Shown here: one piece after another, positions 335 through 63,048 of the stretch | How the letters are laid out: each line of letters starts with the position of its first letter | Position numbering within the stretch: position 1 is the first letter of the stretch | Position numbers and translations under genes: made by a program | DNA from: Tribonema minus | Taxonomy: Eukaryota; Sar; Xanthophyceae; Tribonematales; Tribonemataceae | Reading direction: 5' to 3' | Length of the DNA stretch: 64,000 nucleotides | Assembly: GCA_017506865.1 (NCBI GenBank) | Contig: JAFCMP010000543.1 | Coordinates: 310,001 to 374,000, forward strand | Notes under the pieces: generated by a model | Told to the model about the DNA's origin: nothing | Database searches by the model: none | Seen by the model: only the letters and a program-made list of their open reading frames with translations

Positions 335-3300
335 ATGCCCCTGCCAATAACGAGCTCGGTTGGCACGCGCTGCGGCAGGTGCGGCGGCGCCGCGTCCGCA
401 GTGCCATTCAGCGAAGCGTCCGTGTGGCAGCGGCAGCGGCGCTACTACGCACGCAAGGGGATGGGGGCGTGGTCCAGGGGGGAGGTTCCGAGGGGGGTTT
501 CGTCGGGTGCGCCTGCGGCGCAGGCATACGCCGAGGTGGGTATGTAGCATGGGATGCGGCTGGTGGCAGTGCTCAGTTTGATGTGAAGCCAGATGTGCCC
601 AGCAGCGTGTCTGCTGTGCGTCTGCGGCAGCTGCGCCGCACACTACTGCTGCAGGCATAGGCACAAGTTGTGGGAGGGGGGGCGAGGGTCAGTAGGTGTC
701 AAATGGAAGGGGGTCACCACTTGGGCGAGGTGTAGTCGGGGTGACGTGTTGTCATGCTGGCCATGAGGACACCGGATTATTGCACTTGCATTTTCATCCA
801 TGCAAAGTAGAGCTTTGTGCATAGTGGAGGCGGGCCTTCATGTATGTGCACCTATGCCCTAGCTGCGGCGTGTTTACACGGAATCACGACCAATGCAATG
901 TTTTGCCATCAAGCGTGCACCAGCGCCTAACATGACCTGGTTTGGAGCAACAGCAGCGCCATTCTACGCCCAGGCACCATAACTGTTTTCTTACGCAAAT
1001 TTGCCTGTTTGAACTGGCGAATGTCTATGTCTGGCTCATGCACTGGTCAACATACCTACCTGGGTGCAAGCATGCACCAACTCAGCTGCTTATGCGTCAG
1101 TCAACGTAGTAGCGCATTGGAGACCCCTCAGTATGAGGTCGCCTGCGCTGCTGTTCAACTTCAACAGGTGGCGGTGGCATGGCTCAGAGACCGTGTTGCG
1201 CAGGGCACCGTACTGGACCCCTCGCAGCCCGCCTTCGTTGGTGAACTTGCACGCTGCTGTTCAACTTCAACAGGTGGCGGTGGCATGGCTCAGAGACTGC
1301 GTTGCTCAGGGCACCGTACTGGACCGCTCGCAGCCCGCCTACATCGTTGAACTAGGCGCGGGGCACTGCCAGCTAGGGTAAGTACGTACCTGCATGCAAG
1401 TGCTTCAGAGAGCTTCCGCAGTGTACTAGAGGATCGCATGGATGGTCTGGCCACAAGTGATGCGTTGTAGGACGAGCGCAACGGGTTCGTCGTGGACGCA
1501 GCAGCAACATTTAGAAGCATTTTGCACGTGCGGATGCGTGCACATCCCTTCCTATACGCGCCACTTGCGCGTACGCGTTGCCAGGATGGCGGCGCACGAA
1601 CAACCATGCGCACATCTGGGCATCTGCGAGTGTATTTGAGAGTGTGCCTTTGCATTCGGCAGGGCATGCGCACACGCAGGCACGCTTGTGCTGCTATGTA
1701 CGCATCGTCAGCTGCCGAGACTATGCCACTGTCGCGACCTCAGCGACTTTGGCGCTGCTGAAGCAGTCAGCGACCCGCTCACGTTTGCTCAGCAGTTGTC
1801 CCTGGCCGCTGAGCACTGATTGCTCATGGTAGGCATGCCCGTGGTACAGTGGCTTGGTGTCAGCCGCCAGCGCGGCACCTCTGCAGCAGCAGCGGCGCCA
1901 ATGCAATCAGTCAGTCAGTGACCCGCTCATCGTCTCTCTGTCGAGTTGTTCCTGGCAACTGAGCACTGAGTGCATGTCCGCATGGCCATTGGTATGTATG
2001 CATGTAAGCATTTGGTGGCCCGCTCATCATCGCTCAGTCAAGTTGTTCCAGACTGCTGAGCACTGACTGCGGAGACCACATTGCCCTCGGTATGTGTGTA
2101 TGGTCCTCCGCCCGCGCAGCTTCCTGGTCACCAAGGCCATCCAACGCATGTTGGCAGAGGGACAGCTGGGTCTGCATGGGCTGCAGGTAGGCAGAGGCAT
2201 CAAGTGCTCGAGTCGGGTGCGTTCAACTGCCTGGTGCTCAGCAAGTCTCAACTTCACAGTTACAGTATCAAACCTCACAATCTCTGCTGTACTGTACGCT
2301 GTAGTGAGTGTTCCTCCGGTGCGTAGGTGAAGCTGGTGGTGGTGCAGGTGGTGATGCAACCTCTCTGCTAGAGGCTGCACAGGACGTGACTAAGCATGTC
2401 CATGTGTGTGCGCGTGATATTGCCACTTATACTGATAGAAACAAGACATTGTCATCGCGTAGCAAGTGTCTTCTTGGTGCCACCCTCTCTGCCGTACCTA
2501 CTACATTCCATCTCAGATACGTGTGTCAGACCCCATTGCTGGCTGATGAACGCATGTCTTTATCACACACCACCTCCATGCGCACTGCGTCATCGAGCTG
2601 CCCCTGATGTCCCAGCGTCACCTGATGCGTTGCGCAAGTGTGCTGACTCGCTTCATCGACAGCAAGTCAACAACATGTCATACGTCTGCGCATTCCACTC
2701 CTCTCCCTGCGTGTTCTTCAAGCATAACTTCAATTGGTGACGCACACAGCAACGCTCGTCATTGCTCACAGCACTACTGCGGCCATTGTTGTGCAGGTGT
2801 GCGTGGTCATGACGGACTTCCACGACGTCGTGCTGCGCGAGCGCATGAGCAGCGCGTGCTTCCGCGAGCTGCTCGCAGCAGGTGCGCCGCAGGTCTTGCG
2901 CTTGTGACGCTCCCCATTGTCCCGCGCCTGCGACGCTCCCATTTGTCTTGCGGCGGTGACGCTCCAGCTTCACATGTGACGCTCCCACTGTGACGCTCCA
3001 GCTTCTCATGTGGCGCCCCCACTTATCTTGCAGTGACGCTTCAGCTTCACATGTGACGCTCTCACTTGTCTGTGCAGTGGTGACGTCAAGCTTCACAAAC
3101 AGTTTTTGTGGAGCCATGTCTGCCGCTAGCTGCTGCGCGCAGTGACCACAGATGTGCTGTGTCCACAGCGATCAACGCACACAGCACCAGGCGGCCCTCA
3201 AACGCTTGGTACACTCACTTGTGGTCAGCATCGCGCACTCGTGGCTGCTGCCGAAGGCCTTTGCTGCTGTGTCAGACACAGCAGCTGTACGGCCACAAAA

Positions 3301-9635: not shown

Positions 9636-12600
9636 TCACGTGTTGGCGAGCTGGAACGAGGCGCTGTCGGCCTTTTTGCGCACGGGCATCCAGCCGCGCC
9701 CGTCGGCGAGCTTGATGAAGACGATGTCGCTGGCGTTGTGCGGGATGAAGCGCTCGCACGCCTTGACCTTGTCTCCAGGCTCCAGCATCTCGCCTGCGGA
9801 GGTGGCAGCGATCAGCGAGGCGAGGGGAGGTGACAGCGATCAGCGGGGCGAGAGGGGCGCGCGGCGCGTCACACGGGCGCCTTCGATTGCATCTCTGCGC
9901 GTGTGTGAACGCTGCAAAGAGCGTGAATGTGGGGGCAGGAATCGGGGGGGGGCAGAAGCGCGCCTGTGGCAGCAGAGACCTACAACTGTACTCTTCATTA
10001 AAGCGCTACCGTATTCTTGTGCCCTCAGGTGGTACTTGTGTGTACTTGTGCGCGCCTGCGTACAGCGGAGACTGGCACTGTGCGCGACCGAATCGACCCA
10101 TGATAGTGCATCTGCGAGCCGCCCTCGCTCTGATGGGGGCTGGTACGTCGCAGGACAGCGCCTGCGGCCCGCGCGCACCTCCCGCTTCCTGCTCGGTTGT
10201 CGAGCTGCCGGTAGAGTGTCTCGGGCCACAGCTGGGTAACATTTGCTCTCCGATCAGGCCACGGCGTGTTCACATACTATAAAAAAACTGCCTCTTCGTC
10301 TTACACCATTACGCCAGCATTGAGGTTCCTGTCAGCAGCTGCGAGCGTTCCGAGCTGCTCATGCGAGTGGTCACCTGTCCTGTTGTTGGGCCAGGCATCA
10401 CCTGTGAGTTGAGAATCGTTGCCGGGGCCGAAAAAGATGGGCACGGGCTCCACCAGCGTGGAAGGCAAGCCGTACGTCTTCTTGTCCTCCACTATCGTGC
10501 CGCCGACCTCCACGAACATTACGCTGTCGGTCTGAGCGATGTGACAACAGGGGCGGAGAGACGGGGGAGGGGGGGGGGGGAGGTTTAGTGGCATCACAGT
10601 GCAGAGGGGGGGGTCAGTGGCACCACAGTTCAGGGGGGGGGGGGGGGGGGGGGGAGGGGGTCAGTGGCACCACGGTGCATTGACCCTGGCAGTCCACTCA
10701 AGTATGAAAAAAGGGGCAGCGCGGCTGACAACAGCAGTGGTATCGGACCAGCCACCTGGGAAGCGCAGAACAAGAAAGAGGCACAGAGCTTCTGGAAAAA
10801 GGGCGACGTCATTTGCTGCAATGACGCAGCGCAGGGACGGGGGGGCGATCCCGCACGAATGATGCCAGACTACCCCTGACGCTGATCATGACCCTAACAG
10901 TACACGAGACAGCGACGTCAAGAAGGCGCCGCGCCGAAACGCACAAGCATTGGCCGTTCTCGAGCAGCGGCATGAAGGGAAGGCAGCGGTGCGCAAGACA
11001 GCCATCTATAAACAATACTTCTATGGTGTAAGGCCGCACAATACATGTTGCTGGGCAGTGCGGTACACGCATCCATTTATGTATGTACATCAAAATATGT
11101 ATGCATTTGCATATAAACATACTGAAGTATATGTATACGCATACACATGTACAAGGAGACTTGTTGTAAAACAGTATGGTACACGCATATACATATATGT
11201 ATACACTTCGAAGTACATGGTCTATATATATATGCTTCGGGTACAGAAATGTATGTGCAGAAGCGCTCACCTGTGGGTTCCGCAGGAACATCCAGCCGCG
11301 GTCGTCCGCCAGCCGCAGGTAGACGACGTCGCTCACAGTGAGGCGCTGCACCACCTCTATGACCTCGCCGGGGAACAGGCCCTCGCCTGCATTCATTCAT
11401 GAATTCATTCATAAGCATGAATTCATACATTGATGTTATAGATAACATCAAGGTCGCTGATGAGACCAAGTTCTGTGTGATGAGTTGGAGGTGTCACTTG
11501 GGGCGTGGTCAGTCATCCTCAGTGGCGCCTGCACGCATGCACTCATGTAATGACGCCAATCCATATTTATCATTTATCGAGTCATTCGCTGATGCACGGT
11601 CAGCCAATCGCCTGCTGCGCGCGGGGGTGGTCACCCGGCGTCGCAAGGAAAAGCGCCCGGTGCGGCCAGAACACTCGTGCCGCCGCATGTTCAGGAGACT
11701 TTCGTGTGCTGCGGCAGCGCCGCCGCCGCGGCATCGACGCATGCGGCGCCTCAAGACACGCAGCACTTCCCCCCAGACATGCACGTGCAGTAGCGCCACA
11801 CCGACTCGTGCAGCGCGGCGAAACACGCACTAGGTACTTCACCCCAGACATGCATGTACACAGTGTACAGTAGTGCTTGCGACGCGGCGCGCACCTGTGC
11901 CGCTGCCGCAACAGCTCGTGCGGCGCCGTACAAACACGCACTACTTGACCGCAGACATGCATGTACATTGTGCAGTAGTGCTTGCGACGCGGTGCGCTTC
12001 AAGTATATACATACATACCTGTGCGCGGGGCGTCCAGCTCCGGGTAGGTACGTATCCACTGCGCCGCGGCCTCGTCGACCATGCGGTAGAACTCGCGGAT
12101 GCGCGGGAACCCGTCGCGCCAGTACTTGTCCTCGGGAACAACGTACGTCTGGTGCCATGGGGCGCGGAGAAAGTGCAGGGGAAGGAGAGAGGGGGGGGGG
12201 GGTGAGGGGGGGGAGGGGAGGGAGGGCATTCGTACCTCAGCGGCAGGCAGAGAGCATGTGTGCGCAGCTCATGTGCGCTACCAAGTAGCTCTTTAGGTCA
12301 AGTTTGCCTCGAGCTGCAGGGGATCGCTGGTGTGCGCATGTTGCCGAGGCAGAGGTGGGGGCAGCTTGCAGCAGCAGCGCTGAGAGTGTCAGGTTGTCAG
12401 GCGGCTGCTCCGCACGTGCAGCTTGCTGGTGGTCAAAAGCGCGAGCGAGAGTGGCCCTCAGCGGCTTGTGCAGCAAAGCACAGTGAGTTCCGTGCGGCAC
12501 CGCTCGACACGCTCTGTGCAGCATGCGCAGCATCGTTTGAGCAGCATCGTTCAACCAGGAAGAGCTGTGTAGCATCATTGCTCAGCAGTTGTGTTCCGTT

Positions 12601-49000: not shown

Positions 49001-52000
49001 GGTTAGGGTTGGGGTTAGGGTTGGGGTCATTGAGAGGGGTAGGGTTGGAGCTCATCACGTGCAGCTTTGTGAGGTGAGCGCTGCCGCACTGGTCATCGAG
49101 CGCTGCTGCTGCTGAGCACTGAAGCACAGGGGGGCTATACCCCCTACGACCCCCCCAATGCTGGGGGGGTGCCACGTCACTTACGCAGACGTGGAGGATG
49201 ATCGTCAAGGAGCGCACGTACATTCAGATATGTAGTGCAGCACGCAGCCATGCATGGCGTGCAAAAAGAGTAGTAACAGCTGAAGTTGTGCCGCGGCTCT
49301 GGCCTTTGCGGGGTCTCAAGCCACATGCCAGAGTTGAAGTTTGAGTTGAAGGCTGGATGTCGCACAAGTAGCCGTTGAGATGTGTTGAAGTTCAAGTTGG
49401 ACCTTTGCATGACCATTACGTCGCCTACAATGTATGAGCGTCCGCTGTTGCAACCGCCGCACTCACTGACTTACCTACCCCACCCCCCGCCACCCCTCCT
49501 GCAGCCAACCGCCGCACTCACTTGCTCACTTGCTGACCTACTGTACCCCCCCCCCCCCCGGCCTCGGCCCGCAGGTGCATCAAGCCCAACGCGGACATGG
49601 CGGAGGGCCAGTTTGACCGCCGCTACGTGCTGGAGCAGCTGCAGTGCCTCGGCATCCTGCAGACGTGCGAGGTATGTGCGCAGTCGGTCAAACTTCACGT
49701 GCAACTGCAACAACTGTCATGTTATACGCACATCAGTGCCTGCGCCTCCTGCAGACGGGCGATGTGCGCGCAGTGCTTAGGGTTAGGGTTAGGGTTAGGG
49801 TTTGCCGCTCTCATTCCAAAGCCTGACCCTCGCGCGTGTGCATCGCGCGCGCGCGCGTCGCGTCGCGAGCGCTGCTGCGGTAGTGCTCCGGCCCGATCGC
49901 GCGCATGCAGGGCCAGGTTCTGACACGCTTACACTCACCACCGTCGCGCGCGCCACGACCGATGATCATTGCCATCAGGTTCAGGTTTTGACACGCTCGC
50001 ACTCACCGCCGTTGCGCGCGCGACATACCTATACATACCCCATTGCCCATCCGACAGGTGCTGCGCGTGGGCCTGCCGACGCGCGTGAGCTACGCGGAGC
50101 TCAAGGACGTGCTGCGGGGGCGCGTGGGCGAAGCGGAGCAGCTCACTGAGCGCAGCGCACCCGCCCCAATCGCGCGCAAGCAGGGTTACGCTAGGTCTTG
50201 ACACACTCACTCACCGCCGTTAGGTTCTGACACACGCTCACGCTCACTGCCGTCGCGCGCGCGACAAACGACACAGGTTTTGAAGGTGGGCCTGCCGACG
50301 CGCGTGAGCTACGCGGAGCTCAAGGACGTGCTGCGGGGGCACGTGGGGGAAGCGGAGCGGCTGTTTGCGGGCGAGCCAGAGCAGGTGCTGATCAGCGCCG
50401 TGCTGTGGGCGTTCGACGTGCCAAGCGCTGCCTTCCGGCTCGGGCGCACGCGCGTCTTCTTCAGGGCTGGGCAGATCTCGGCGCTCGAGGGGATCCTCAA
50501 GTGAGTACTTCACGTTGAATTTCAAAGAAACTTCAGGTTTTGTAATCTCTTGCAGCTGGCGGCGATTGCACAGGATGCGCGTGTTCTTCAGGGCGGGGCA
50601 GATCTCAGCGCGCTCGAGGAGAAAGAACTTCAAGTTGAAGTTCCAAGACCTGTTGACGTACGTTGACTTGACGTTGTGTAGACGCTTGCAGTACAATACA
50701 TGGGGCAGGCTGGGCTGAGTGCACAGGGCACGCATCTTGTACGATACAGGGCAGATCTCGGTGCTCAGGGCAAGTGAGCACTCGAAGTTGACATTATTGA
50801 AGTTGGAGGGTTGTACACATGCACGCAGACTGGGTGTGCTCAGAATGGCGCTGCAGCAAGCGTGCAGGACGTCCAACGTCCCTTGGGGCTAGGTTTAGGG
50901 TTAGGGTTAGGGTTAGGGTCCCATCGCCACCGCGAGCATGCATTCACAAAGTAAATCAAGTGGCGCGCTGAGTCGCAGTGGGAGTCCACAGCCGGTGCGC
51001 ACGCGTGCTGGAGCTCCGCACGCGCAGTCCAGAGTGCCCCATACACCTCACGCCGTGTGTCCTCAAAGATGAACCTCATTGTCGAAGTCATCCGCACCTG
51101 CTGACCAATGCACGCATGCGGCCACCGGCTTCTCGTGTTCCCCGTGCCCAGGAACGGGAGCGTGGAGGCGACTTGGACTTCATTATTGAAGTTGATGCAC
51201 GCCAGCTGACTTGCACTGCCCTTGCCGCTTTCTGTCCCGTGCCTCAGGAACGGCAGCGCGGAACGGGGCGACTGGATTGTGCAGCGCCTCAAGAAGGCGC
51301 TCGAGGACCGGAAGGTCGCCAAGGTGAGCACTGACGCAGAGGGCATACATACCCTACCCATGTGTGTGCCTTGAGGTTGCATCCGCTCAGCGCCAGGGCT
51401 TTCTGCAACCGCCAACAGCAACCGCTGATGCATGCGCGCCTTCATCCCTACAGCGTCACCGCTGCAGTGCCCCCACACTTCTCGAACTTGCCCCCCCATG
51501 GGCACCCGAGAGCACGTGATACCTGACCCCCCCTTTTCCATCACGGAGCGTCACCATTTGCGCTTGACCGCTGCCGCGCTACCTACCTACCCCCGCAATG
51601 CATCACGGAGCGTCACCACTTGCACTTGTCCGCTCTCGCGCACAGGCGCACGCCGCGGAGGCGCAGGGCCTGCTGGCGGAGGCCGCGGCGGCGGTGGCGG
51701 GCGTGACGACGGGCAGCAGCGCTCAGGCGCGCGGCCAGGACGCAGGCCCCTCGTCCGCGCTGGCGACGCTGCGCGAGTACAACGGGGTGAGCGCTGCTGC
51801 TGAGCTGTTACCTAAAGTTGTGTGCGCGTGCGGCCACGAGACAGGGATCAGCGCTGCTGCTGTAGCAGATGCTTGAAGTTTGCACGCACGTGCGGCGGGG
51901 GGACGGGGGGTCAGCGCTGCTGTAGCCCTAACTTGAAGTTGTGTTCAGAGGGTCCGTGGGCCGGTGACGGGGGGGGGGGGTCAGCGCTGCTGCTGCAGCA

Positions 52001-55000
52001 GGCACTGAAAACTGTGTGCATGCGCAGCCAGGCGGCGCGGCCGCCATCAAGGTCACACTTTGCGAGCACACGTGCTTGGGCTGAGTCCTGCTGCAATTGC
52101 GGTAGCCAACACTTGAAGTGGCGCGTCTGCTGTGCGCGCGCGCATGCGCTCGTGCTGATTATCACATCAGGCACCGCATGCCCTTCAGCGTGTATGCATG
52201 CTCGATCACGAATCGCGCAGCGCCCGCGCTCTCCGCTTGTGGCGCGCCTGGCCAGCGCGAGTGCTGCCACTGCGTCGCCGCCGCCCGCCGCTTGCCGCGC
52301 CTTGCAGCGAGCCCTCTCCTCTGCCGGGCCCTCTGCGCTGCGACCGTCCGTGCTCACATGCACACCTGCCTGCCCTTGGCTGGGCGCTGCGCTGCGGCGC
52401 GCGCGCGGCGGCGTCAAGGCAGATCAGCAGCGCGCTCGCACCCGGCCACAGCATTCAACAAGCGAAAAGGGTGTGTCTTGCATTTAGCCCTCTTGTGTGT
52501 TGCGACTGCCCTTGCTCATTCGCGCACCTGTGCTTGCGCACTTGCTGCTCTGCGCGCAGGTGCTGCGGCGCGCGCGCGGCGGCGTCAAGGTGGACCAGAT
52601 CCAGGCGCTGCTCAAGGCGTCGCGCGAGGCGGGGCTCGGCACGCACGCGCCGCAGGCTGCAGCAGCGCTCAACGAGGCTGCCAGCGACGCCACCGCCAAG
52701 GCGCAGGCCTCCAAGTACGTCCCGCCGCGTTCATTTGCTCGGTTTCGTAACAGGCTTGGTACACTTAAGTTATTTTTTGTGTACGAGACACGGTATGTTG
52801 CGACTCTCGTGATTGCGGGCCGCGGCAGCGCTCAACGAGGCCGCCAGCGGCGCCACCGCCAAGGCGCAGGCCTCCAAGTGCGTCCCGCCGCATGCTTTCA
52901 TTTGCTCGGTTTCGCAACGGGCTTGGTACACTCAAGTTATTTTGTGTGTACGAGACACGGTATGTTGTGATATGCGGGCTGCGGCGGCGCGCCATTACGC
53001 TGCCAACAGCACCATCACCAGGGCGCAGGCCTCCAAGTGCGTGCCGCTGCTCTCATGCTCTTACGATTTTTCAAGTACCTTTGGTTACATGAAAGCTGTG
53101 GAAGAGGCTTTGTAAGCTGAAGCTTTTTTGTGTGTGTACAAGACCACGGTGTGTCGAGACTCAAGTGACCGCGGGCTGCGGCGGCGTTCAGCGACGCTAC
53201 CAACGGCACCACCGCCAGGGCGCAGGCCTCCAAATACGCCCCACTGCCCTTCATTTGCTACCAGTTGTAAACAAGATTATTTATTTGACCGCTCTCGACA
53301 ACGCTCACCCGTGCGCTCTCGCAGGGGCGCAGCGGACGCTCTCGACAGCGCGCTGGCGGCGGCGGGCGTCGACAGCAGCGAGCGCCTCGCGCAGCGCCTC
53401 GGCGCGACGCTCGCCATGGTGGCGGCGCTGCGCGCGGAGCTGAGCGGCGCCGCCGCCGCCGCCGCGGACGCCGCCAACAAGTGCCAGGCGCAGGAGGTGA
53501 GGGGGCGCGTCGCCGCACATTTGAAGTTGAAGTTGCCTTGCGTGTTGGCGCGCTCCGAAAGGTGGTTGCGGGCGTCGCGTACCGCCGCGGACGCCGCCAC
53601 CAAGTGCCTGGCGCTGGAGGTGAGGGGGGGGCGCGTACTCACATGTTGAAGTTGCAGCTGCTGTTACGTCGGGCATGCTTCAAAAGGTGGAGGCAGGTGT
53701 TCGGTAAGGAAGCGGTGAGTGTTTTGAAGTTGAAGGTGAAGTCGTGGACGCGTGCGTCGCTGGTGTGCGCCTTGCAGGAAGTTGCGTGTTGATGTGGTGC
53801 AGCAGCAAGTTGTAGTTGGGTGTCCTGCCACAGCGCTACTCGAGAGAGGGAGCGGCGGCGCACACTGTGGCCACGGCAGCAAGTAGTGCTGCCTCCCCCC
53901 CACCCCGCAACGCAGCAGCATTTGCAGCAATCAAGACGTGTACACTAATCCTAGACCCGTGTTCCTTGCCGCCGCCGCTGCTGCCGCATTCGCAGGCGCA
54001 GCGCAGCGCCGCCAAGGCGCGCGACCTGGCGGCGCGCATCCAGGAGGGCTGCGCGCAGGCACGCGCCGGCTCCGCGGCGGCGGACAGCGCCGCCGAGCAG
54101 CTGCGCGCGGCGCTGGCGGGCGCGGGCGCGGCGGCGGCGGTGTGCGCGGAACGCGCGGACGCCGCCGCCGCAGCGTGGGCGCGCGTGCGCGATGTCGCCG
54201 CCGCCACCAACACACAGGTGAAGCGCTGCTGAACTTCACGTATGAACTTTGCACAAAGTTCAATAGTGATTTAAAGTTGCGTGGGCGCGCGTGCGCGACG
54301 TCGCCGCGGCCACCAACGCGCAGGTGTGCACTGCTGAGGTTGACGTGTGAACGTTGCACAAGGTTCAATGTTGATTTGAGGTTTGCGCACGCGGCGTCGC
54401 CTCAGCCATCGACGCTTTCCCCACGGCAGGATTCACACGACGTTGGCTGCGCTGCGGAATGCTGCACGGCTGATGCGCGGCTGCTGCAGCAGTGACGCGT
54501 GTGACGCCCCTAAGCCCGCTTAAAGTTCAATGATGACTTTGAAGCTGGAGAGGGCGCGCACGCGTCTGACAATGTCGCGGCCACCGACGCCTTGGTGAGC
54601 GATGCTGAACTTGAGCCGCGGTCGCCCGCGCAAAAAGTCCAATAATGATTTGAAGTTGTGCAGAGGTGCGCGCGCGCTATGGCTCGCTCTCCTCACAGGC
54701 GCAGCGAGCGCGCCCCGAGTGTCACTTGAGCAAGTGCACATGACCCACCTGCCAGGTTCAATGCCGACAAACCCCGTGCTGAGTCGGATGCTGTAACAAA
54801 TTGTTGCGATAGCTGAACGCGGCTACAACACCCAAACATTCCCATCGCACCGCTACAGGAACGTGAAGCGGCGGCGGCAGCGGCGGCGGCAGCGGAAGCG
54901 GCAGCGGCCGAGAAGGCGGCGGCGCGCAAGGCGGCGCGGCAGCGCGAAGCGGCGGCGGCGGCGGCAGCTGGCGCGGCGGCGGCGACGGCGGTGGCTGTGG

Positions 55001-58000
55001 GCGCGGCAGGCAGCAGCGGCAGCGGCGCGGCTGCTGCCGGCAGCAGCAGCAGCAGAGGCGCGGCGCCGATGGCGTCGGTCAATCCGCGCGGGTCGGCCGC
55101 TCGGGTGCGTCTCGTGTTTTGTTTGCGCACTGTGCTGTGGAAAATGGTCGTGTGCAGGCGCGGCACGAGAGCGCCATCTTTGTTACTTCAGTGTCAGAGT
55201 GTGCGCGTCGGGGCTGGTGCAGAAGGAGTTCGCGGCGCCCGCGACATGCCCGACACGCACTTCAAATTTGAAGTTGTGGCTGAGCAACCCGCCTCTTCGC
55301 GTACTTCAAGTACACCCCCCTCCCCGGCGTGAGCGCTGCCTCGGAGCTACACGCTCCTCTGACTCCCCCCCCCCCCCCCCCCCCCCCTCCTCTTCCGTAT
55401 CTGCCGCTACAGAAAGTGGCGGCGGCGGCGGCGTCGGCGCGCGTCGGCGCGGAGAAGCTGACGGCGGCCGACAGCGACACGTCCGATACGGAGGACACGC
55501 TGGACGAGAGCGGCAACCCCGAGATTGTGCGGCCGTCCATCAGCAAGCAGAAGTCGACGCTGCGCGCGGTGCTCGAGGAGGCGGAGCGCCTCGCGCGCGA
55601 GGAGTCCACGGTGAGCGCTGCTGCTTCTTCACGCTATGTACTTCCATATGCGCTGCGCGCTGTATGTTGTATGTAGGTATGTACGGGCAGATGGCCAAGT
55701 GCTGGGGTGAGGGTCGGGATCGGGCGTGTGCGTAAAAGGGTTAGGGTTCGCTCGCGCGCTAGGAGTCCACGGTGAGCGCTGCTGCTGCTGCTGCTGCTGC
55801 GCGCTGTGTGTATGTATGCGCTGCTGCTGTGTACTGTATGTATGTATGGGCGCGCGAGGAGTCCACGGTGAGCGCTGCCTTTGCGCGCTGTGCGTAGGTG
55901 TGGCGTAGGAGGCAAAGGGCTACGGTTAGCAAATGGGGGTAAATTGGGGTTTACGGGGGGGGGGGGGGGGTAGGAAATGCTGTGCAAGGTAATCGGAGCG
56001 CTCTATGCGCAATGAGTTCCCGGCGCAGTGCGTGTGCGCATGTATGCTCGTGAAGCCCACCGTGTGTGTCGCCATTGGGAAACCGTTTGCAACAACGCAG
56101 CTCACCAGCTGCTGCCCCTGCTGCCGCTGCTGCTGCTGCTGCCGCTGCTGCTGTCCCATCTGCAGACCACGCTGCTGGCGCCGCTGGAGAAGGCGCCACG
56201 GCCTGGCATGCACATGAGGGTACGTATATATATATGCATGTGGTCATGCAGGTCTGCAGCGCAACCATCCCGACATTACCACGGCGACAGGTGTCGAGCG
56301 TGCCAAGCACACGCTCCAAGAGCAGGAGATAGGTTTAGGGTTCAGCTAAGTCGCGACTGGTTGGGGGAGGTCACAGCAGGGCTGAAAGGCCGCGCGCGGC
56401 TGCATTTGCTCATTTGGCCGCCTTTTGCTCATTTGGCCGGCATTTGCTGATTCGAGTCAGCGCCAAAGGGTGATTGGTCGGGATCCCAGTTCATGAACCC
56501 TCTTCAACTGAGGCAGCAGCTCGATCTGGACTTGTCGATGCGGCAGCAATGCTCCGTGCCGCCCTTGCGCACAGGGCAGCTGGTTGCTGCCGTCCTCCCT
56601 TCGCACTGCTTGCGCTAGGCGCGCCGATGCGATGTGAGCATCATCCGCGGCATCATGTCGCTGGCTCAAACGATGAATGTCACTTCTGATTCCCGCGTCG
56701 CTGCGTTGCTCGTTGTGCGCCCGTTCACCGCGCAGGCGCAGAGTTTCGGCTTCAGCGGCAGCACCAGCACCACGCGCACCACCAACCAGGTGAGAACTTC
56801 AACTTCAACTTCAATTCTTTCATGCACGAGTGTAGGGGGTAGGGGGCAGCGGTTCGCCCACGCGTGCACTTCAACCCATGCTGCGTAGTTTAAACCAGCA
56901 CGCCGTCGTTTGATGCGTACGTCGTGTATATGGAATGCCCTCACCGACTGACGCACTGTTGGCGCGTACTGTACCGTGTGCATGCAAGTGTGTACGTCTC
57001 GATTGACGCAACTGCTCGCCGTCGCGTTCCGCCTGCTGCTGTGCGCTGCCGCAGTTCCGGTCGATGACGCGCATGGGCCAGCAGCCCGGGTACCACTCCA
57101 ACAACACCTCCGCATCATCCACGCCGCGGCCCATCGACTACACGGAAGTGCGCCGCGCCTCACAGGTATGTATGTGTGCGTGTGCACGCGGGGTATGTAC
57201 TGTAGGCATTGTATTGAAACGCCTCCGCGTCGTCCACGCAGCAACCCATCGATACGGTATGCATGCATGTCTTTAGACGTGTGAACGCGGGGAGGCCCCC
57301 GAGCGGTACGAGTGTGTTTCGGGGATAAAATTGTGATGTGCTGTGACTCAGCCTGTGAGCAAGCGATCTCGACAGCCGCGCAGGACTGCGCAGCGCTGTG
57401 ATGGCGGCAGTGGACAGCCCTTTGCGGAAGGGTCACCGGGCCACGCAGCAACCCATCGATACGGTATGCATGCATGTCTTTAGACGTGTGAACGCGGGGA
57501 GGCCCCCGAGCGGTACGAGTGTGTTTCGGGGATAAAATTGTGATGTGCTGTGACTCAGCCTGTGAGCAAGCGATCTCGAAAGCCGCGCAGGACTGCGCAG
57601 CGCTGTGATGGCGGCAGTGGACAGCCCTTTGCGGAAGGGTCACCGGGCCACGCAGCAACCCATCGATACGGTATGCATGCATGTCTTTAGACGTGTGAAC
57701 GCGGGGAGGCCCCCGAGCGGTACGAGTGTGTTTCGGGGATAAAATTGTGATGTGCTGTGACTCAGCCTGTGAGCAAGCGATCTCGAAAGCCGCGCAGGAC
57801 TGCGCAGCGCTGTGATGGCGGCAGTGGACAGCCCTTTGCGGAAGGGTCACCGGGCCCCCCCCGCGCCGACTCGTTGTCAGCACCGCTCAGTCATCAGCAG
57901 CGCTCAGCATACCGGCACGCTTTCGCGCCGCCGCAACACAACGGCGAAGGGCATAAAATCTGCGGTGCTGCGCATCTATCCGAGAGCTCACCTGGCCTCG

Positions 58001-61000
58001 TGCCTGGCCCTGCACGCTGACAGCGACGGCGTTGTGCTTGCCTACACTCACCTCAAACCCTAACCCTAAACCCCAAAAACCGTAACTCTAAACCCCAACC
58101 CTTGTTGCAGGTGGCGGCGCGCCAGCGGGAGTCGTACAAGACCAAGTTTGTGGCAGCGCTCCGCGCGGACAAGGTGGAGGGCTCGCTCAAGAAGAAGACC
58201 AAGGTTCTCGACAGGTGCGCGCGAGCGCGGCGCGGCAGCGCTCAGCAGAACATGTACTCGTCCAGCATATTGTACTGTGTACTGTGAACTGCAAGTACAC
58301 TCACTCACTTCAGCTGCCTTCTTCTGTGATGAAACCCGTGCATACTGAAATTCTTTCTCAGAGCGCCTGAGGCTCCTGGCTTGCCTCTGGGCGCAGCATG
58401 CGTCTAATTTCAAACCCCAACCCTATGCCAGCTCTGTGTAATTCGTTCAGTCACTCGTCGGGCGCTAGCATGGTGTACCTACCGACGCCTTCCGCCTGCG
58501 GGCCGTGCCTATGATGGATCTGTTGCTGCACGTCGCAAATCTGCCGACCGGTGCCACTGCGGCGAAGGTGGAAGGCGCAGTGTTCCACGTTGTGCATTCG
58601 ATCATGCGCATTCGCATGTTCACTTGCTCATTCATCCTGCGCGGTCGGCACTGCATGCGTACCTACCCCTCAGGTGGAAGGCGCGGTGTTTTGTCCTTCA
58701 ACAACACGGCGCTCTCGTACTGCAACAAGAATACAATTCATCGTACATTCACTCATCCATCTGCATGATTGGGTCACATACGTACGAACCCCTCAGGTGG
58801 AAGGCACGGTGGTTTGTCCTTGAGAACACAGCGCTCGAGTACTACGACAAGAAGGCGCTGCTGGGCTCGGACAAGAAGAAGACGCTGCCCATCACGTCAA
58901 CGAGGTACGTTGCACGGCGCCGCACGCTGTCATGTTGTTGGCGTAGGAGACGTTGGCGGCGAAGGCCTATCCCTGACCCTAACCCTATCATGTAGCAGAC
59001 AAGAAGAAGACCCCGCCCATCACCCTGACCAGCTACGTTGTGCGGCGCCGCATGCTGTCGTGCTGCTACAAGACGACTAGCTGCTTTGCGTGTTGGTCGC
59101 TGCCTTCACGTGTTTATGTCGCACTCACCGGATGCTGGGGGTCCTCTGTGGCGAGATGCCCTTCTTCTTAGTTCAACTGCAGCGTACAAACTTCATTTGT
59201 CAAGTCCCGCCGCATGGCTGTCGCAGCGCGAAGTCGGACTGCTTATGCGTCAAGACAGGGTCCAATGGTGGCCCCTGCGGTGTTTGCATCTGCACTTCTC
59301 TCAGCCCTCGCGGCGCAGTTGTCCCTGACCCTGCTACCACAACCCTGCTTGTCGCAGCGTGACCTCGGCGGAGAATCTCAAGGGCTGCTTCTGCGTCAAA
59401 ACGAGATTCAACAGTGGCTCCCGCAGTGCTAGTGCTGCTTTAGCAGTTCTCGACGAGTGACGCATAGCTATTCAGACCCTACTGGTCACTAACCCTACTG
59501 CCGTAACCCTACTTGTCCGCAGCGTGACGTCCGCGACGAACCTCAAGGACTGCTTCTGCGTCAAGACGGGCGACGAGCTGTGGTTCCTGCTGGCCAAGGA
59601 CGACGCCGAGAAGGACAAATGGATGACCGCCGTCAACGCCCTCATCTACGCGCTCTACGTGCAGGTACGTACCGCTGCTATGTATTGCAGCTGAGCGCTG
59701 ACCGACGTATTGCAGATCATGCATAGTCGGCAATGAACGTTTTTTTCCCATTAGCGTATAGCCAAGTGGATGACGGCCATCAGCGCCCTCGTCTACGCGC
59801 TCTACGTGCAGGTACCGTCGCTGACCGCCTCTGCTTGCTGGAGAATAATTACCGCGATCGAAGACACGTGTTCTCCGCAAGCACGGCGGCACGAGAGTTG
59901 CGCGACCATGACCTCGAGCTGTTGTCAGAGAAGCACGCGCGCGCGCGCTGCGCAACCGCCAGGGTGCAGTCTACCACCTTCTCGTCCACGCCGTTCGCAG
60001 TGTCCTCCATGGCCTCGCATCCTCCTCCTGTCCCCGCACATGCGTCGCGCGGTCGCAGTCGTACCGCCCGCCCCAGGACAGCTGTGCATGCGCGAGGGCG
60101 TAGCCTATTGCACACCTTCTCATTCGCGCTGTCCTGCGTCGCGTCCTCATCACCTCAAGACCTCGTTATGTCCCCCTACACACGCGTCGCGCGCGCGTGC
60201 AGTCGTACCGCCCGCCCCAGGACAACTACTGGGAGGCGGAGGGCGCCACCAACATGCACGGCTTCTTCAGGGCCATCGAGGCCTCCACGCCGCAGTGGGT
60301 GCGCGCGTTCCCGGAGCTGGACGCGCCGCGCACAGGTGTGTATGGTGTATGTATATATACGCATGGAGGTATCTGTGAAATATGCATTTGTAGTCTTATG
60401 TGTGCAAGCGTATACTGTAGGTTTGTTTGTATATGGATAGGCCATTGAGGCGTCCACCGCGTTCCCGGAGCTGGACGCGCCGCTCACGGGTACGTATGTA
60501 TACATGTGTAAATGTGAAGTATGCATTTTCTGTAGTCCATGTGTGGGGGGGCTAGATAGAATGTACTGCAGGCTCACCAGCGATGGGGGGCGTTGCGCGC
60601 ATGATGATAGAGCGCACTGCGTCGGACTGTCGCACGCCTGTGAACTTGGCGCGTAAGCTTGACCAGTGGCGGCAGAGTGCCGCTCGCTGTGGCATGACCA
60701 GGCAGACGCAAAGCACCCGAGCTGAGACTACTCCCAATGAGAGAGCACGTGTGACCACTTGCACGAACGAGCGAAGATCGCTTACGCATGAATCTCGTTC
60801 ATGAATACCTGTCAATGGATGACCGCAGTCAATGACCTCGATCCCGTCAAGGTCGTGACAATGTCGTCGCCGTGCTCCCGATGGACTGCTTGCATTCCGC
60901 TCAGGACGTGAACTTGCATGAACAGATGCATCACTGAATGAATTCCACTCATGATGCGCATGAATTTCATGAATGAGTGCAGGCGATGGCGTCGTCCCCG

Positions 61001-63048
61001 GCGAGGTCGTGGAGGTCGAGCAAGCCATCGAGAAGCGCATTTCTGCTATGATCCTGATCGAATGCTCCTTTCAATGAATGAACTCCACTCATGACGCGAA
61101 TGAATTCCACTCATGAATGAATGCAGGCGACGGCGTCGTCCCCGGCGAGGTCGTCGAGGTGGAGCAGGCCATTGAGAAGCGCAGCGGCGCAGTCTTCCTG
61201 CGCCTCGCCGACGAGCGCGGCTGGGTGCTGCTGCGGTCGCCACATGTGAGCGCTGCCGCATAATCAACAAAATTCAAGTTTTCATTTGCAGTTTTCAAAG
61301 AAACGCATTGAATTCACTTGAATTTTTCACAAGGACATGTTCCCGCGGCTCGCCGACGAGCGCGGCTGGGTGCTGCTGCGGTCACCACATGTAAGTTTGA
61401 AGTTGTACTTGCAGCTATCGCCGCAGTGTTTTAACTTGAAAGTACTAGTTCAAAGTTTTTACTCAAAGTTACTACATGAATGTGTTCCCGCGGCTCGCCG
61501 ACGAGGGCGGCTGCGTGCTGCTGCGGTCACCACATGTGAGCGCTGCCACATCATCAACTTAAAGTTGTTCCTTGAAGTACACCAACACAAGCTTGAATTC
61601 AAGGTTGTTGCTTGATGTTTCACGCAGGAAGTCTTCACTTCGCAGCTGTCATGCGAACATGTATCTTGCTCAAGTTGCCACGCTCCGCCGCGTACTTCAA
61701 CGAGCGCGGCTGGGCGCGCTGCTGCCACAATGTTGAGCGCTGCCACACAATGCCCCCGTCGCTGCTACAACAAACTTCACTCTCAGCTGCGAAGGCTTTT
61801 CAGGAGCACTCAAATGCCGGATCAAGTGCCATGTCTCCGCTCCGTTGCTGCTGCAGTCGACGCGACTCGTGCAACATCACTTCGCATTTGCCTGCACGCT
61901 CTTTGTGTCCAGACGATTCCCAATGCCGTGCAAGCAGCCGGAGCTACTGCTAGCATCGTCTCCCTCTACACAGGCCTCAGCAAGGCACATGTGCACATGT
62001 TGTAACTGACCGGGGGCTCTTTTGTGTTGCACTTGTCATGTACTTGTGTGTTGTACCTGTGGCCGCAGAGGAGCACGGCGCTGTTTGAGCAGCTGCGAGG
62101 CGACGCCACGGTGGACAACAAGCTTTACGGTGAGCTGAGTGCGATGGCAATTCCCCGCTTTGATCTCTGCTTAGATCTTGCAGCAGGGACCAACAACAGA
62201 TGTGCACAAGAATACACACAGCTGCTTGACAGCACTTCTGACAGCAAGATTTGGGATGCGGTGCGTGCGCATGGCTTGCAGCATGTGCGTGCTTGTGGAT
62301 CACGTGCCCAAAACCGCTGCACTCTTTCGCGTTCGTTCAGCATGCACTTACCCTAATTCTTGACCCTTGCCCTAATCCCGTTGCGAGCAGGCTTCCTGGA
62401 CCCCAAGATGCAGCCCGTGCCCATCTATGCGGGCCCCGGCCTCAAGTCCAAGCCGACGGGTGAGCACTCGATGACTGTCTACAATGATGCTAATTTGCAG
62501 CATAGTTTACCTCACACGAATGGGGAAGTACAGCAGCAGAGCCAGCTTGAGCGCTAAACGACCATAGACGACGCTGCCTGATGGCTGGCTCGCACAGTTG
62601 AAGATTGGAAGGGCAAACAGCCCTCTAGCTCAAGCCATTGTCGGAGTCGGGTGGCGTTGCCACTGTGCAGGCAAGTCGATGGAACGTCACTCTCCTGCAT
62701 TGAGAACCTCAAGTGCTGATGAGATGGACCACTTTTCTGCGCAGCGCCACATGTACAGCTCCAGGACTGGCAATCACTCTGGAACCGTACTCCGCTTGTA
62801 TTTCTGCCCAACAACACAGTGCGCGTCATCACATGGGTGTGCCTGCCTTGAAGTTGCAGAGAGGACCAACCTGAGGTTACCGACACCTACTTACCCCCCC
62901 CCCCCCCCACATTTCCCCAGGCGACTCGCTCACCCCCGGCTGCAAGGTCCAGGCCGCCATGCGCTTCCTGCCGTACGACCTCTCCGGCATGATGTTCATC
63001 AAGCTCGCCGACGGGCGCGGGTGGGTGCCCGTCAGGAGGAACCTCTGA
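43002..63048 (+). CDS. Myosin heavy chain C, paralog of B: SH3-like N-terminus, motor, Ala-rich tail, PH domain, two SH3-like C-terminal modules
   Basis: 30 exons: 43002-43178, 43549-43800, 44476-44613, 44935-45051, 45440-45631, 45932-46138, 46757-47125, 47440-47544, 48019-48246, 48703-48950, 49575-49671, 50277-50500, 51248-51323, 51646-51786, 52560-52714, 53325-53496, 53996-54217, 54859-55104, 55413-55610, 56166-56219, 56736-56789, 57055-57165, 58111-58214, 58797-58904, 59523-59664, 60203-60335, 61127-61245, 62069-62129, 62391-62459, 62921-63048. They total 4647 nt (1548 aa) with phase kept. P-loop GESGAGKT is at ~165-172, switch [10 protein letters not shown] at ~215-223 and switch II DIFGFE at ~453-458. 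No IQ motif is visible. The tail is strongly Ala-rich, and the PH domain spans ~1283-1379 ([12 protein letters not shown] to [15 protein letters not shown]). SH3-like modules contain [13 protein letters not shown] (~1424-1463) and [13 protein letters not shown] (~1507-1548). The motor has a 13-residue insertion before [13 protein letters not shown] that B lacks. Confidence 0.93.
45722..45776 (+). repeat. Copy of the 5' part of myosin C exon 45932-46138
   Basis: Sequence GCATCGCGCTGGACGGCGT and the following GACGAC...GCGCAG block match the exon start ([11 protein letters not shown]). A shorter fragment of the acceptor region recurs near 45838-45860. Confidence 0.8.
46248..46301 (+). repeat. 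Copy of the 3' edge of myosin C exon 45932-46138 plus donor
   Basis: Encodes [12 protein letters not shown], against [12 protein letters not shown] in the exon, followed by GTGACT. It lies in the downstream intron. Confidence 0.85.
46957..47000 (+). repeat. Short dispersed element forming a coding insertion in the myosin C motor
   Basis: Inside exon 46757-47125, this stretch (GGCGGCGGCGGCAAACC ... AGGAGTTGAAGTTGG) creates a 13-residue net insertion ([13 protein letters not shown] region) just before [11 protein letters not shown]. It closely matches the intronic element at 25986-26032 of the paralog and contains the GAGTTGAAGTTG word common in introns here. The frame stays open. Confidence 0.62.
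48281..48413 (+). repeat. Two copies of the 3' edge of myosin C exon 48019-48246 plus donor
   Basis: Copies end GTGCCGAAGGCATTCCAG at 48303 and CGGAGGCCTTCCAG at 48413, each followed by GTGAGCGCTGCTGCACATG, with the GAAGTTGAAGTTG-type word nearby. The longer copy reaches back to the RNNDR part of the exon. Confidence 0.9.
48510..48595 (+). repeat. Copy of the 5' part of myosin C exon 48703-48950 with acceptor
   Basis: An AACAG acceptor followed by GACGTGCTCGGCGCGAGCAG and the [14 protein letters not shown]-coding stretch repeats the exon opening with a small length change that breaks the frame. It lies about 190 bp upstream. Confidence 0.88.
49046..49073 (+). repeat. Copy of the 3' edge of myosin C exon 48703-48950 plus donor
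   Basis: About 27 bp (GAGCTCATCACGTGCAGCTT and the splice site) followed by GTGAGCGCTGCCGC. The true edge reads ELTTCSFVR with GTGAGCGCTGCTGC. Loose TTAGGG/TTGGGG repeats separate the two. Confidence 0.88.
49731..49765 (+). repeat. Copy of the 3' edge of myosin C exon 49575-49671
   Basis: A CAGTGCCTGCGCCTCCTGCA-type block followed by GATGTGCGCGCAGT mirrors the exon end and donor region. A TTAGGG run (49779-49801) follows directly. Confidence 0.75.
49779..49801. repeat. Interstitial (TTAGGG)n tract
   Basis: Nearly four perfect TTAGGG units in a myosin C intron. Confidence 0.85.
49914..50276 (+). repeat. Repeated intron block with a truncated copy of myosin C exon 50277-50500
   Basis: A motif resembling TTCTGACACGCTCACACTCA ... 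CGTCGCGCGCGCGAC occurs about four times. Between the second and third occurrence lies 50059-50140, an acceptor plus the first ~80 bp of the motor exon ([18 protein letters not shown]), which then diverges. The intron end before this partial copy (CATACATACCCC ... CCGACAG) matches the intron end in myosin B, while the one before the complete exon does not. Confidence 0.82.
50568..50772 (+). repeat. Two copies of the 3' edge of myosin C exon 50277-50500
   Basis: Encodes [11 protein letters not shown] at about 50575-50610 (exon [11 protein letters not shown]). A shorter GGGCAGATCTCGGTGCTC copy lies at about 50747-50765 followed by GTGAGC-like sequence. GAACTTCAAGTTGAAGTTCC lies between them. Confidence 0.85.
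50886..50922. repeat. Interstitial (TTAGGG)n tract
   Basis: Four to five TTAGGG-type units in a myosin C intron. Confidence 0.85.
51144..51182 (+). repeat. Copy of the 5' edge of myosin C exon 51248-51323 with acceptor
   Basis: CCCGTGCCCAG then GAACGGGAGCGTGGAGGCGAC repeats the exon start, whose acceptor reads CCCGTGCCTCAG. It lies about 100 bp upstream. Confidence 0.85.
52389..52440 (+). repeat. Copy of the 5' edge of myosin C exon 52560-52714
   Basis: Repeats GCGGCGCGCGCGCGGCGGCG (exon RRARGGVK) in the upstream intron, then diverges. Confidence 0.75.
52715..53233 (+). repeat. Array of three copies of the 3' edge of myosin C exon 52560-52714
   Basis: Copies of the [16 protein letters not shown]-coding exon end lie at about 52822-52878, 52986-53038 and 53178-53233. 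They are separated by spacers sharing TTTGTGTGTACGAGACACGG. The first two keep a GTGCGT donor; the last has lost GT. Units are 150-195 bp. Confidence 0.88.
53577..53619 (+). repeat. Copy of the 3' edge of myosin C exon 53325-53496 plus donor
   Basis: Encodes [12 protein letters not shown], against [12 protein letters not shown] in the exon, followed by the same GTGAGGGGG donor context. Confidence 0.9.
54278..54594 (+). repeat. Two or three copies of the 3' edge of myosin C exon 53996-54217
   Basis: A close copy at 54278-54322 encodes [14 protein letters not shown] (exon [14 protein letters not shown]) followed by GTGTGC. A diverged one at about 54545-54594 ends in GTGAGCGATGCTG. A third, weak trace lies near 54385-54428. 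GATTTAAAGTTG/GATTTGAAGTTG words recur between them. Confidence 0.85.
55747..55868 (+). repeat. Two copies of the 3' edge of myosin C exon 55413-55610 plus donor
   Basis: The exon end GAGGAGTCCACG followed by GTGAGCGCTGC recurs with edges at about 55771 and 55868. Spacers share GCGCTGTGTGTATGTATG-like sequence with the true intron start. Confidence 0.88.
57235..57855 (+). repeat. Three nearly identical 207-bp tandem repeats in a myosin C intron
   Basis: Units begin at 57235, 57442 and 57649 with CACGCAGCAACCCATCGATA. The start of each unit copies part of exon 57055-57165 ([10 protein letters not shown] region). A long antisense open frame across the array is a by-product of 207 being divisible by three. 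The near-identity points to a very recent expansion. Confidence 0.93.
58566..58735 (+). repeat. Two upstream copies of the 5' part of PH exon 58797-58904
   Basis: GGTGGAAGGCGC(A/G)GTGTT blocks at about 58566-58590 and 58676-58735 repeat the exon start (WKARWFVL). The better one encodes WKARCFVL and then diverges. Its CCCTCAG acceptor matches the true exon's. Confidence 0.87.
58997..59070 (+). repeat. Copy of the 3' edge of PH exon 58797-58904 with intron start
   Basis: GACAAGAAGAAGAC...CCCATCAC repeats the DKKKTLPIT exon end. The following intron sequence (ACGTTG...CGGCGCCGCA) is copied too. Confidence 0.88.
59217..59410 (+). repeat. Two upstream copies of the 5' part of PH exon 59523-59664
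   Basis: CTGCTTCTGCGTCAAAACGA-like blocks (exon DCFCVKTG) lie at about 59222-59262 and 59357-59410, each following a CGCAG acceptor-like context. Confidence 0.82.
59759..59811 (+). repeat. Copy of the 3' part of PH exon 59523-59664 plus donor
   Basis: Encodes [16 protein letters not shown] followed by GTACCG. The exon encodes [16 protein letters not shown] followed by GTACGT. The frame and donor are both intact. Confidence 0.92.
60056..60490 (+). repeat. Copies of both edges of myosin C exon 60203-60335
   Basis: A 5' copy (GCAG then SYRPPQD) lies at about 60056-60081. A 3' copy (FPELDAP with GGTACGTA) lies at about 60439-60490, including the GCCATTGAGGCGTCCAC part of the exon. Confidence 0.88.
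60980..61045 (+). repeat. Copy of the 5' part of SH3-like exon 61127-61245 with acceptor
   Basis: Begins TGCAGGCGATGGCGTCGTCC and encodes [18 protein letters not shown], identical in meaning to the exon start, then ends. ATGAATGAATTCCACTCATGA repeats surround both copies. Confidence 0.92.
61334..61735 (+). repeat. Three copies of the 3' part of SH3-like exon 61127-61245 plus donor
   Basis: Copies at about 61337-61390 and 61484-61540 encode [15 protein letters not shown] and [15 protein letters not shown], followed by GTAAGT and GTGAGC. A third, diverged one lies at about 61690-61735. All sit in the downstream intron. Confidence 0.9.
62887..62908 (+). repeat. C-rich run upstream of the last myosin C acceptor
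   Basis: A C run ends about a dozen bases before the CCCCAG acceptor at 62920. It is a typical example of the C-type polypyrimidine tract used by all genes in the window. Confidence 0.7.

What the first reader, a model, noticed from the sequence alone, without database searches (positions are those of the whole stretch)
335..63048. Systematic duplication of exon edges together with their splice sites in all four genes
I count more than 40 intronic fragments that copy the end or the start of the neighbouring exon, including the donor or acceptor. 3'-edge copies are always downstream of their exon and 5'-edge copies always upstream, as expected from local tandem duplications that span an exon-intron boundary. 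Many keep an intact reading frame and splice site (59759-59811, 61334-61390, 37902-37940, 36261-36321). This is far more than chance and affects two unrelated gene families plus a paralog pair. It may be a main way introns grow here, and may supply decoy, alternative or recursive splice sites.
Basis: seen in the sequence. Interest (0 to 1): 0.88.

Follow-up and report, generated by a model that had tools for sequence, protein, structure and literature searches.

The report
Tandem duplications straddling exon-intron borders
In this stretch of an unidentified eukaryotic genome, short pieces of DNA that straddle exon-intron borders have been copied side by side again and again, leaving introns with extra, often intact-looking splice sites that the cell must apparently ignore.

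Summary
I built exon models for a head-to-head pair of paralogous myosin-PH genes (A, B), a CRAL_TRIO gene (S) and, tentatively, an unidentified gene (G). Of 82 exon edges tested, 31 have a same-strand copy in the adjoining intron: A 15/30, B 11/34, S 4/6, G 1/12. For the 64 edges of A and B, 0/64 have a reverse-complement copy, 0/56 a wrong-side copy, and unrelated introns predict 0.08 hits.

Most copies look like one unit of a local head-to-tail duplication (mostly 90-290 bp, median about 150). 24 of 26 resemble their own exon more than the paralog's, so most postdate the A/B split. Their substitutions are nearly even over codon positions, as in non-coding relics. 13 of 28 copied splice sites score as well as the real ones, yet 20 of 24 tested would meet a stop codon.

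Intron interiors duplicate too, but edges carry 2.6-3.9 times more, more than exon conservation alone should give. Best reading: break- or nick-repair tandem duplication that survives when it spans a border because splicing keeps the exon-proximal site. Decoy use, the organism and genome-wide extent are untested.

The parts
43549..63048 (+). Gene A: myosin motor (exons e1-e14, 43549-52714) with downstream PH-domain and tail exons (p1-p5, 58797-63048); exons between 52714 and 58797 not modelled; end of p5 not established
   Evidence: Exons from paralog alignment, models; Myosin_head E 7.7e-178 for the A motor
9675..31405 (-). Gene B: paralog of A in inverted, head-to-head arrangement; motor 75% identical to A
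   Evidence: PH domain E 2.5e-15 on the assembled B tail exons
35857..37735 (+). Gene S: CRAL_TRIO-domain gene, three exons modelled (35857-36090, 36710-36828, 37555-37735)
   Evidence: Pfam CRAL_TRIO E 1.2e-17
335..5755 (+). Gene G: unidentified gene, seven tentative exons; only one edge copy
   Evidence: no Pfam hit for its long ORFs or for an assembly of part of it
46217..46383 (+). Copy of 3' edge of A e5-6 with donor, offset 163
48357..48517 (+). Copy of 3' edge of A e9, donor CAG|GTGAGC identical to the real one, offset 167
49042..49137 (+). Copy of 3' edge of A e10, offset 123; telomere-like TTAGGG repeats lie between exon and copy (does not exceed the tandem null)
49728..49774 (+). Copy of 3' edge of A e11, offset about 92 (junction not in the alignment); TTAGGG repeats begin right after it (does not exceed the tandem null)
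50573..50691 (+). Copy of 3' edge of A e12, offset about 127-133 (junction not in the alignment)
59761..59885 (+). Copy of 3' edge of A p2, offset 147
60440..60545 (+). Copy of 3' edge of A p3, offset 154 (153)
61337..61714 (+). Two further copies of the 3' edge of A p4, at offsets 145 and 290
45717..45871 (+). Copy of 5' edge of A e5-6, offset 206, AG lost
48478..48649 (+). Copy of 5' edge of A e10 with acceptor, offset 192
49888..50156 (+). Copy of 5' edge of A e12 with acceptor, offset 219
51073..51175 (+). Copy of 5' edge of A e13 with acceptor, offset 96
52297..52446 (+). Copy of 5' edge of A e14, offset 171, AG lost
59949..60082 (+). Copy of 5' edge of A p3 with acceptor, offset 144
60909..61039 (+). 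Copy of 5' edge of A p4 with acceptor, offset 144
   Evidence: also TRF period 144
30596..30680 (-). Copy of 5' edge of B e2, offset 156
30049..30201 (-). Copy of 3' edge of B e2, within an 85-bp array (offset 255, 170)
28621..28837 (-). Copy of 3' edge of B e4, offset 233; the one copy closer to the paralog's exon
28159..28336 (-). Copy of 5' edge of B e5, offset 162; frame open into the real exon
24855..24988 (-). Copy of 5' edge of B e9, offset 134
   Evidence: TRF period 134
24394..24501 (-). Copy of 3' edge of B e9, offset about 125 (weakest, score 42; junction not in the alignment)
23713..23836 (-). Copy of 5' edge of B e11, offset 149
22899..23129 (-). Copy of 5' edge of B e12, offset 231
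22344..22490 (-). Copy of 3' edge of B e12, offset 149
13838..13948 (-). Copy of 5' edge of B p2, offset about 120 (junction not in the alignment); lies in an intron whose position may not be shared with A
12954..13272 (-). Region with a copy of the 3' edge of B p2, inside a 319-bp tandem array (copy junction near 13252, offset 446; 504)
35620..35765 (+). Copy of 5' edge of S s1, offset 127, AG changed to AA
36262..36410 (+). Copy of 3' edge of S s1 with GTGCGT donor, offset 231
37331..37432 (+). Copy of 5' edge of S s3 with acceptor, offset 202
37900..37977 (+). Copy of 3' edge of S s3 with GTGAGT donor, offset 205
1146..1247 (+). Copy of 5' edge of G x2 with acceptor, offset 106

Best explanation
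Short DNA segments (mostly 90-290 bp) are duplicated head-to-tail at a high rate in this genome, most likely by error-prone repair of DNA breaks or paired nicks. A duplication that straddles an exon-intron border leaves two copies of the exon edge and two splice sites. If splicing keeps using the site next to the intact rest of the exon, the protein is unchanged and the second edge remains in the intron as a slowly decaying relic that still looks like a splice site. Shown here: same-strand, local, mostly head-to-tail copies in unrelated genes; largely independent origin in the two paralogs; non-coding-like decay; decoy sites often at full strength; edges hit more often than intron interiors. 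Inferred: the repair mechanism, use of the exon-proximal site only, and tolerance through exon-based recognition of splice sites.
For: Own-intron copies at 26 of 64 edges against an expected 0.08; none inverted (0/64) or wrong-sided (0/56); S 4/6, G 1/12. Head-to-tail arrangement: similarity exceeds that of a null keeping only the edge core in 21 of 26 cases; median gap between copies 23 nt against 59 in the null. Within 32 introns plus 120-nt exon flanks, edge copies included: 80 same-strand against 1 inverted repeat pair. Exon windows more than 60 nt from an edge rarely have a copy: 1.4% of 71 at 60-100 nt and 5.3% of 19 beyond. 24 of 26 copies closer to own exon than to the paralog's, 1 tie, 1 opposite; at 5 of 5 edges copied in both paralogs each copy resembles its own exon more. 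Mismatch by codon position 0.157/0.145/0.184 in copies against 0.185/0.172/0.297 between real A and B exons. The motors read fully open from the exon-proximal sites, though edges were chosen at GT and AG sites, so canonical sites are not independent evidence. Repair-based tandem duplication is documented elsewhere (PMC8355091, passages including part of the abstract).
Against: Uniform duplication plus slower decay of the exon side does not fully account for the edge excess: observed edge/interior ratio 1.79 against 0.43-0.58 in 6 and 0.42-1.00 in 16 simulated settings, and 0.406 against a one-sided interior rate of 0.155. Something extra (border hot spots, preferential retention or gene conversion) is therefore likely. 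Five of 26 duplications do not exceed the edge-only null, so for these a short inserted copy is not excluded. Gene G has only 1 of 12. No break-repair footprint is proven. No RNA evidence shows which sites are used.
Confidence: 0.72

Rival explanations
1. The duplications are targeted to, or preferentially kept at, exon borders: exon-intron junctions are hot spots (transcription- or splicing-linked breaks), or border duplication is favoured.
For: Edges exceed one-sided interior windows 2.6-fold pooled and 3.9-fold per intron at the main threshold, sign-flip P <= 0.00025 at all five thresholds; simulations of uniform duplication give ratios below the observed 1.79. On the intron side alone, 14 of 64 windows touching an edge have a copy further into the intron (0.219), against 0.155 for one-sided interior windows and 0.021-0.161 in the 16 simulated settings.
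Against: The intron-side excess is small. The exon side decays more slowly, which by itself allows up to about twofold. Gene conversion from the exon could also keep copies recognisable. The simulations rest on simple rates and random sequence.
Confidence: 0.33
2. The copies are functional: decoy, alternative or recursive splice sites that regulate these genes.
For: GT is kept in 13 of 13 and AG in 12 of 15 copied sites whose junction could be aligned; 6 of 13 donors and 7 of 15 acceptors score at least as well as the real site. Acceptor offsets are multiples of three in 9 of 12 A/B cases. Two acceptor copies (A e10, B e5) read open and in frame into the exon.
Against: 11 of 12 donor read-throughs and 9 of 12 acceptor entries tested meet a stop, and a further one (B e9) shifts the frame (five donor offsets there, for A e12, A p3, B e2, B e9 and B p2, come and miss or differ from the sites). 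Copies decay almost without codon bias. Most copies are not shared between paralogs. Adding the S and G acceptors makes the multiple-of-three count 9 of 15, a post hoc and weak signal.
Confidence: 0.08
3. The copies mark the birth of the introns themselves (AGGT tandem-duplication intron gain).
For: The mechanism is documented (PMC3443670 and PMC4974935, passages); 16 of 45 modelled acceptors are followed by GT.
Against: Birth by this route puts the upstream exon's end just before the acceptor and the downstream exon's start just after the donor; here offsets are mostly well short of the intron length and copies carry flanking intron. The B-only intron 27942-27242 has no such copy.
Confidence: 0.04
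4. Assembly artefact or collapsed haplotypes.
For: One near-identical array, 3 x 207 bp at 57234-57856, could be misassembled.
Against: Edge copies differ from their exons by a graded 4-28% or so, unlike assembly duplicates, and lie on the intron side of edges.
Confidence: 0.03

Closest known systems
Small tandem duplications from break or paired-nick repair (e.g. PMC8355091; its text points to plant and human work)
   Same: Local, same-strand, head-to-tail duplication without a mobile element
   Different: Here known only from old, diverged products; enzymes, end structure and microhomology untested; density at exon borders seems high, though I had no other genome to compare
[quoted passage not shown] potato RdRp gene, PMC4974935; review PMC3443670)
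   Same: Tandem duplication within a gene that copies splice signals; in the potato case the duplicated unit was an intron-exon stretch including the 3' splice site
   Different: There the duplicated sites are spliced and a new intron and exon arise; here the protein appears unchanged and the second site seems unused
Drosophila novel intron positions by tandem duplication or intron sliding (PMC2891723)
   Same: Tandem duplication of coding sequence supplies duplicated splice motifs
   Different: There 5 of 31 near intron pairs, from 12 Drosophila genomes, were put down to tandem duplication, and new intron positions arose; here 31 of 82 edges carry copies and intron positions do not appear to move

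Membership tests
Local tandem duplication (repair-type) | Copies in direct orientation and close by | tested here: met
   26/64 own-strand against 0/64 inverted; 80 against 1 repeat pairs in introns with flanks
Local tandem duplication (repair-type) | Units adjoin head-to-tail and the whole unit is copied | tested here: met
   21 of 26 exceed the edge-only null; median gap 23 nt against 59; 5 of 26 inconclusive
Local tandem duplication (repair-type) | Break-repair chemistry (overhang fill-in, end joining) | not testable with these tools
   Only old products visible; telomere-like repeats next to two edge copies are suggestive at most
[quoted passage not shown]
   25 of 26 A/B copies lie in introns at positions shared by both paralogs (the B p1-p2 intron may not be shared); the B-only e5-e6 intron has no edge copy
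Functional alternative splice sites | Use of the copied site in RNA | not testable with these tools
   No transcripts; 20 of 24 tested uses would meet a stop
Introner or transposon insertion | The same element at many unrelated sites | tested here: not met
   Edges hit unrelated introns at a rate of 0.1% at score >=40. A short dispersed 12-mer exists but is not what the edge copies are made of

The most novel reading that the evidence does not exclude
Exon-intron borders are themselves hot spots for tandem duplication in this lineage, perhaps because breaks arise where splicing and transcription meet. The resulting full-strength decoy splice sites are ignored because splice sites are paired across exons. 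The genome would then be a standing natural experiment on how the spliceosome chooses between identical sites, and a reservoir of half-made introns.
Probability: 0.22. Interest if true: 0.78.

Novelty: new variant of a known kind. Interest (0 to 1): 0.52.

Why it matters
A 2012 review (PMC3443670, passages) names tandem duplication as the one route of intron gain shown in vivo, but its intermediates are rarely described. Here 30 of 70 tested edges in three genes carry a border-spanning copy. Near-identical real and decoy sites, mostly 90-290 nt apart in the same transcript, would give a natural test of splice-site choice. Gene finders could also mis-call such decoys as exon ends.

Tried and rejected
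Acceptor offsets that are multiples of three (9 of 12, P 0.004) looked like a reading-frame footprint. Donors show 4 of 12, adding the S and G acceptors (127, 202 and 106) makes 9 of 15, and most such extensions contain stops, so I do not rely on it.

The intron stretch between exon and copy is at least 60 nt in 27 of 30 cases, against about 18 expected. Suggestive only.

I first reasoned that slower decay alone explained the edge excess. Simulation and one-sided interior controls showed that this was too generous.

Weaker splice sites in the copies: mean scores are lower but not significantly (Wilcoxon P 0.10 and 0.14).

Relatives: no hit for the A/B myosin motor in viral contigs or bacterial/archaeal genomes and no phage match for window 57000-60000; no whole genome is held. 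Pfam scans of 20 long ORFs found nothing at E <= 0.01. No tRNA by the bacterial-code scan and no Rfam match. The organism stays unidentified.

Rows dropped before counts: the A p1-p2 intron (exon edges uncertain) and introns over 2 kb were left out and later tests. Four of the 26 copies (3 donors, 1 acceptor) have their junction outside the alignment and are not in the site-intactness counts. Two of the 26 (A e11 donor, B p2 acceptor) had no junction offset, so they are not among the 24.

Full report
What the window holds. It is eukaryotic DNA (about 60% G+C) from an unidentified organism. Self-comparison shows one pair of paralogous genes in inverted, head-to-head order: gene A on the + strand from 43549 and gene B on the - strand from 31405. 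Paralog alignment gave exon edges, and the models give fully open motor regions of 802 and 779 residues, 75% identical. The A motor matches Myosin_head (E 7.7e-178), and the assembled B tail exons match a PH domain (E 2.5e-15). That motor and PH exons belong to one gene is my inference from their order on both strands. A third gene, S, is a CRAL_TRIO gene on the + strand. Gene G (335-5755, tentative exons) has no Pfam match in its long ORFs or in a partial assembly.

Is the observation there? For each of 64 edges of 32 introns in A and B, I took up to 45 exon bases plus 15 intron bases and searched the rest of that intron. 26 edges score >=40: 13 donors and 13 acceptors. Controls: reverse complement 0 of 64; wrong side of the exon 0 of 56; shuffled introns 0.1%; unrelated introns 0.1%, i.e. 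0.08 expected. Gene S adds 4 of 6 and gene G 1 of 12. The pattern is uneven: A 15/30, B 11/34, S 4/6, G 1/12.

What are the copies? They are local duplications: offsets 92-446 nt, median 155; the largest lies in a 319-bp array. When the intron outside the edge core and its copy was shuffled, the real similarity exceeded the best of 12 nulls in 21 of 26 cases; median span was 0.85 of the offset against 0.64, and median gap 23 nt against 59. Tandem Repeats Finder independently calls several of them, for example periods 134, 144 and 106. So most are tandem duplications whose unit crosses the border. Five of 26 are inconclusive on this point.

When did they arise? 24 of 26 copies match their own exon better than the paralog's, one ties and one (B e4 donor) is closer to the paralog. 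At the 5 edges copied in both paralogs, each copy resembles its own exon more than the paralog's exon or the other copy (margins are small for e12). The events are thus mostly younger than the A/B split. Real exons differ by 0.185/0.172/0.297 per codon position, with 31% of fourfold sites changed, whereas copies differ from their exons by 0.157/0.145/0.184, which is close to non-coding decay. Identity is 0.84 in the exon-derived part and 0.78 in the intron-derived part.

Are exon edges special? Local duplication occurs within introns too: 22.7% of 825 interior windows have a same-strand copy against 1.1% inverted, and over 32 introns with 120-nt flanks (edge copies included) there are 80 same-strand against 1 inverted repeat pair, with 19% of intron bases recognisable as copies. 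Across the window, 20.5% of 1760 windows left after a low-complexity filter have a same-strand copy within 600 nt against 0.3% inverted. Deep in exons copies are rare: 1.4% of 71 windows at 60-100 nt from an edge and 5.3% of 19 beyond. But edges exceed interiors. With the same one-sided search, interiors score 0.146 and 0.165 (pooled 0.155; per-intron mean 0.104) against 0.406 for edges, and the excess holds at five thresholds. A neutral simulation with uniform duplications and constrained exons gave edge/interior ratios of 0.43-0.58 in 6 settings and 0.42-1.00 in 16, against 1.79 observed. Slower decay of the exon side can give at most about twofold (my reasoning). On the intron side alone, windows touching an edge have copies in 14 of 64 cases (0.219): somewhat above one-sided interiors (0.155) and above the simulated 0.021-0.161. 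I conclude there is a real but modest extra excess of unknown cause. Base composition does not explain it: interior windows with and without copies have the same mean G+C.

What do they do? Of copied sites whose junction is in the alignment, all 13 donor entries keep GT and 12 of 15 acceptors keep AG; 6 of 13 and 7 of 15 score at least as well as the real site, while 0.5% of 2243 intronic GTs reach the median real score. Yet reading into or through the copy meets a stop in 11 of 12 donor and 9 of 12 acceptor cases; two acceptor copies (A e10, B e5) are open and in frame, and one (B e9) shifts the frame without a stop in the stretch shown. The conserved motor is encoded from the exon-proximal sites. 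In A and B exons are short (median 133) and introns longer (median 624, those over 2 kb left out), the architecture in which sites are thought to be paired across exons (general knowledge). By geometry any intronic decoy shortens the intron and lengthens the exon, so tolerance of many strong decoys fits pairing across exons. This is inference, not shown.

Mechanism. Small tandem duplications arise at breaks with overhangs by fill-in and end joining (PMC8355091, passages including part of the abstract). Thirteen clusters of telomere-like TTAGGG repeats occur in the window (36 matches, none in 100 shuffles), and two adjoin edge copies at 49003 and 49777. Both belong to copies that did not exceed the tandem null. 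Interstitial telomeric repeats are reported as repair footprints (PMC2246262, PMC7215372; abstract starts in the search listing only). I did not test this association further, and two of thirteen could be chance.

What is known. Tandem duplication as a route of intron gain is established (PMC3443670, passages). A potato case duplicated an intron-exon stretch with its 3' splice site (PMC4974935, passages). In Drosophila, 5 of 31 near intron pairs were put down to it (PMC2891723, passages). My searches of the held open-access library for widespread border-spanning duplications that leave splicing unchanged showed no such report in the rows listed, which were only the best-ranked part for several of them. 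That library omits most subscription papers, so absence is not proof. I rate this a new variant of a known kind.

Noticed in passing
51-80, 18786, 21405-21543, 23907, 27652-27675, 29414-29455, 38315, 39391, 49003-49026, 49777-49806, 50883-50918, 58052-58075, 58965-58988: Thirteen clusters of telomere-like (TTAGGG)n repeats, 36 matches against none in 100 shuffles, seven of them inside modelled introns of A and B; two adjoin edge copies.
   Followed up: partly
27242-27942 (-): An intron present in B (e5-e6) is absent in A, where the exon runs through 45932-46138; the p1/p2 intron position also seems to differ. No edge copy at the B-only intron.
   Followed up: partly
whole window: The 12-mer GAGCGCTGCTGC (up to 1 mismatch) occurs 57 times against 2.8 expected, several times at or just after a donor; CAACTTCAACTTC occurs 12 times against 0.07. 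Origin unknown.
   Followed up: no
57234-57856: Three nearly identical 207-bp tandem units (99% matches): a very recent duplication or an assembly effect.
   Followed up: no
38837-38982 and 41216-41356: Inverted repeat, 83% identical, between the two divergent myosin genes; it may be part of the inverted gene duplication.
   Followed up: no
46982-46994: Exon e7 of A carries 13 extra residues relative to B, with a CAACTTCAACTCC motif on the minus strand like those common in introns.
   Followed up: no
28621-28837 (-): The copy of the B e4 donor edge is closer to A's exon than to B's and has A's GTATGT donor; it may preserve an older state.
   Followed up: no
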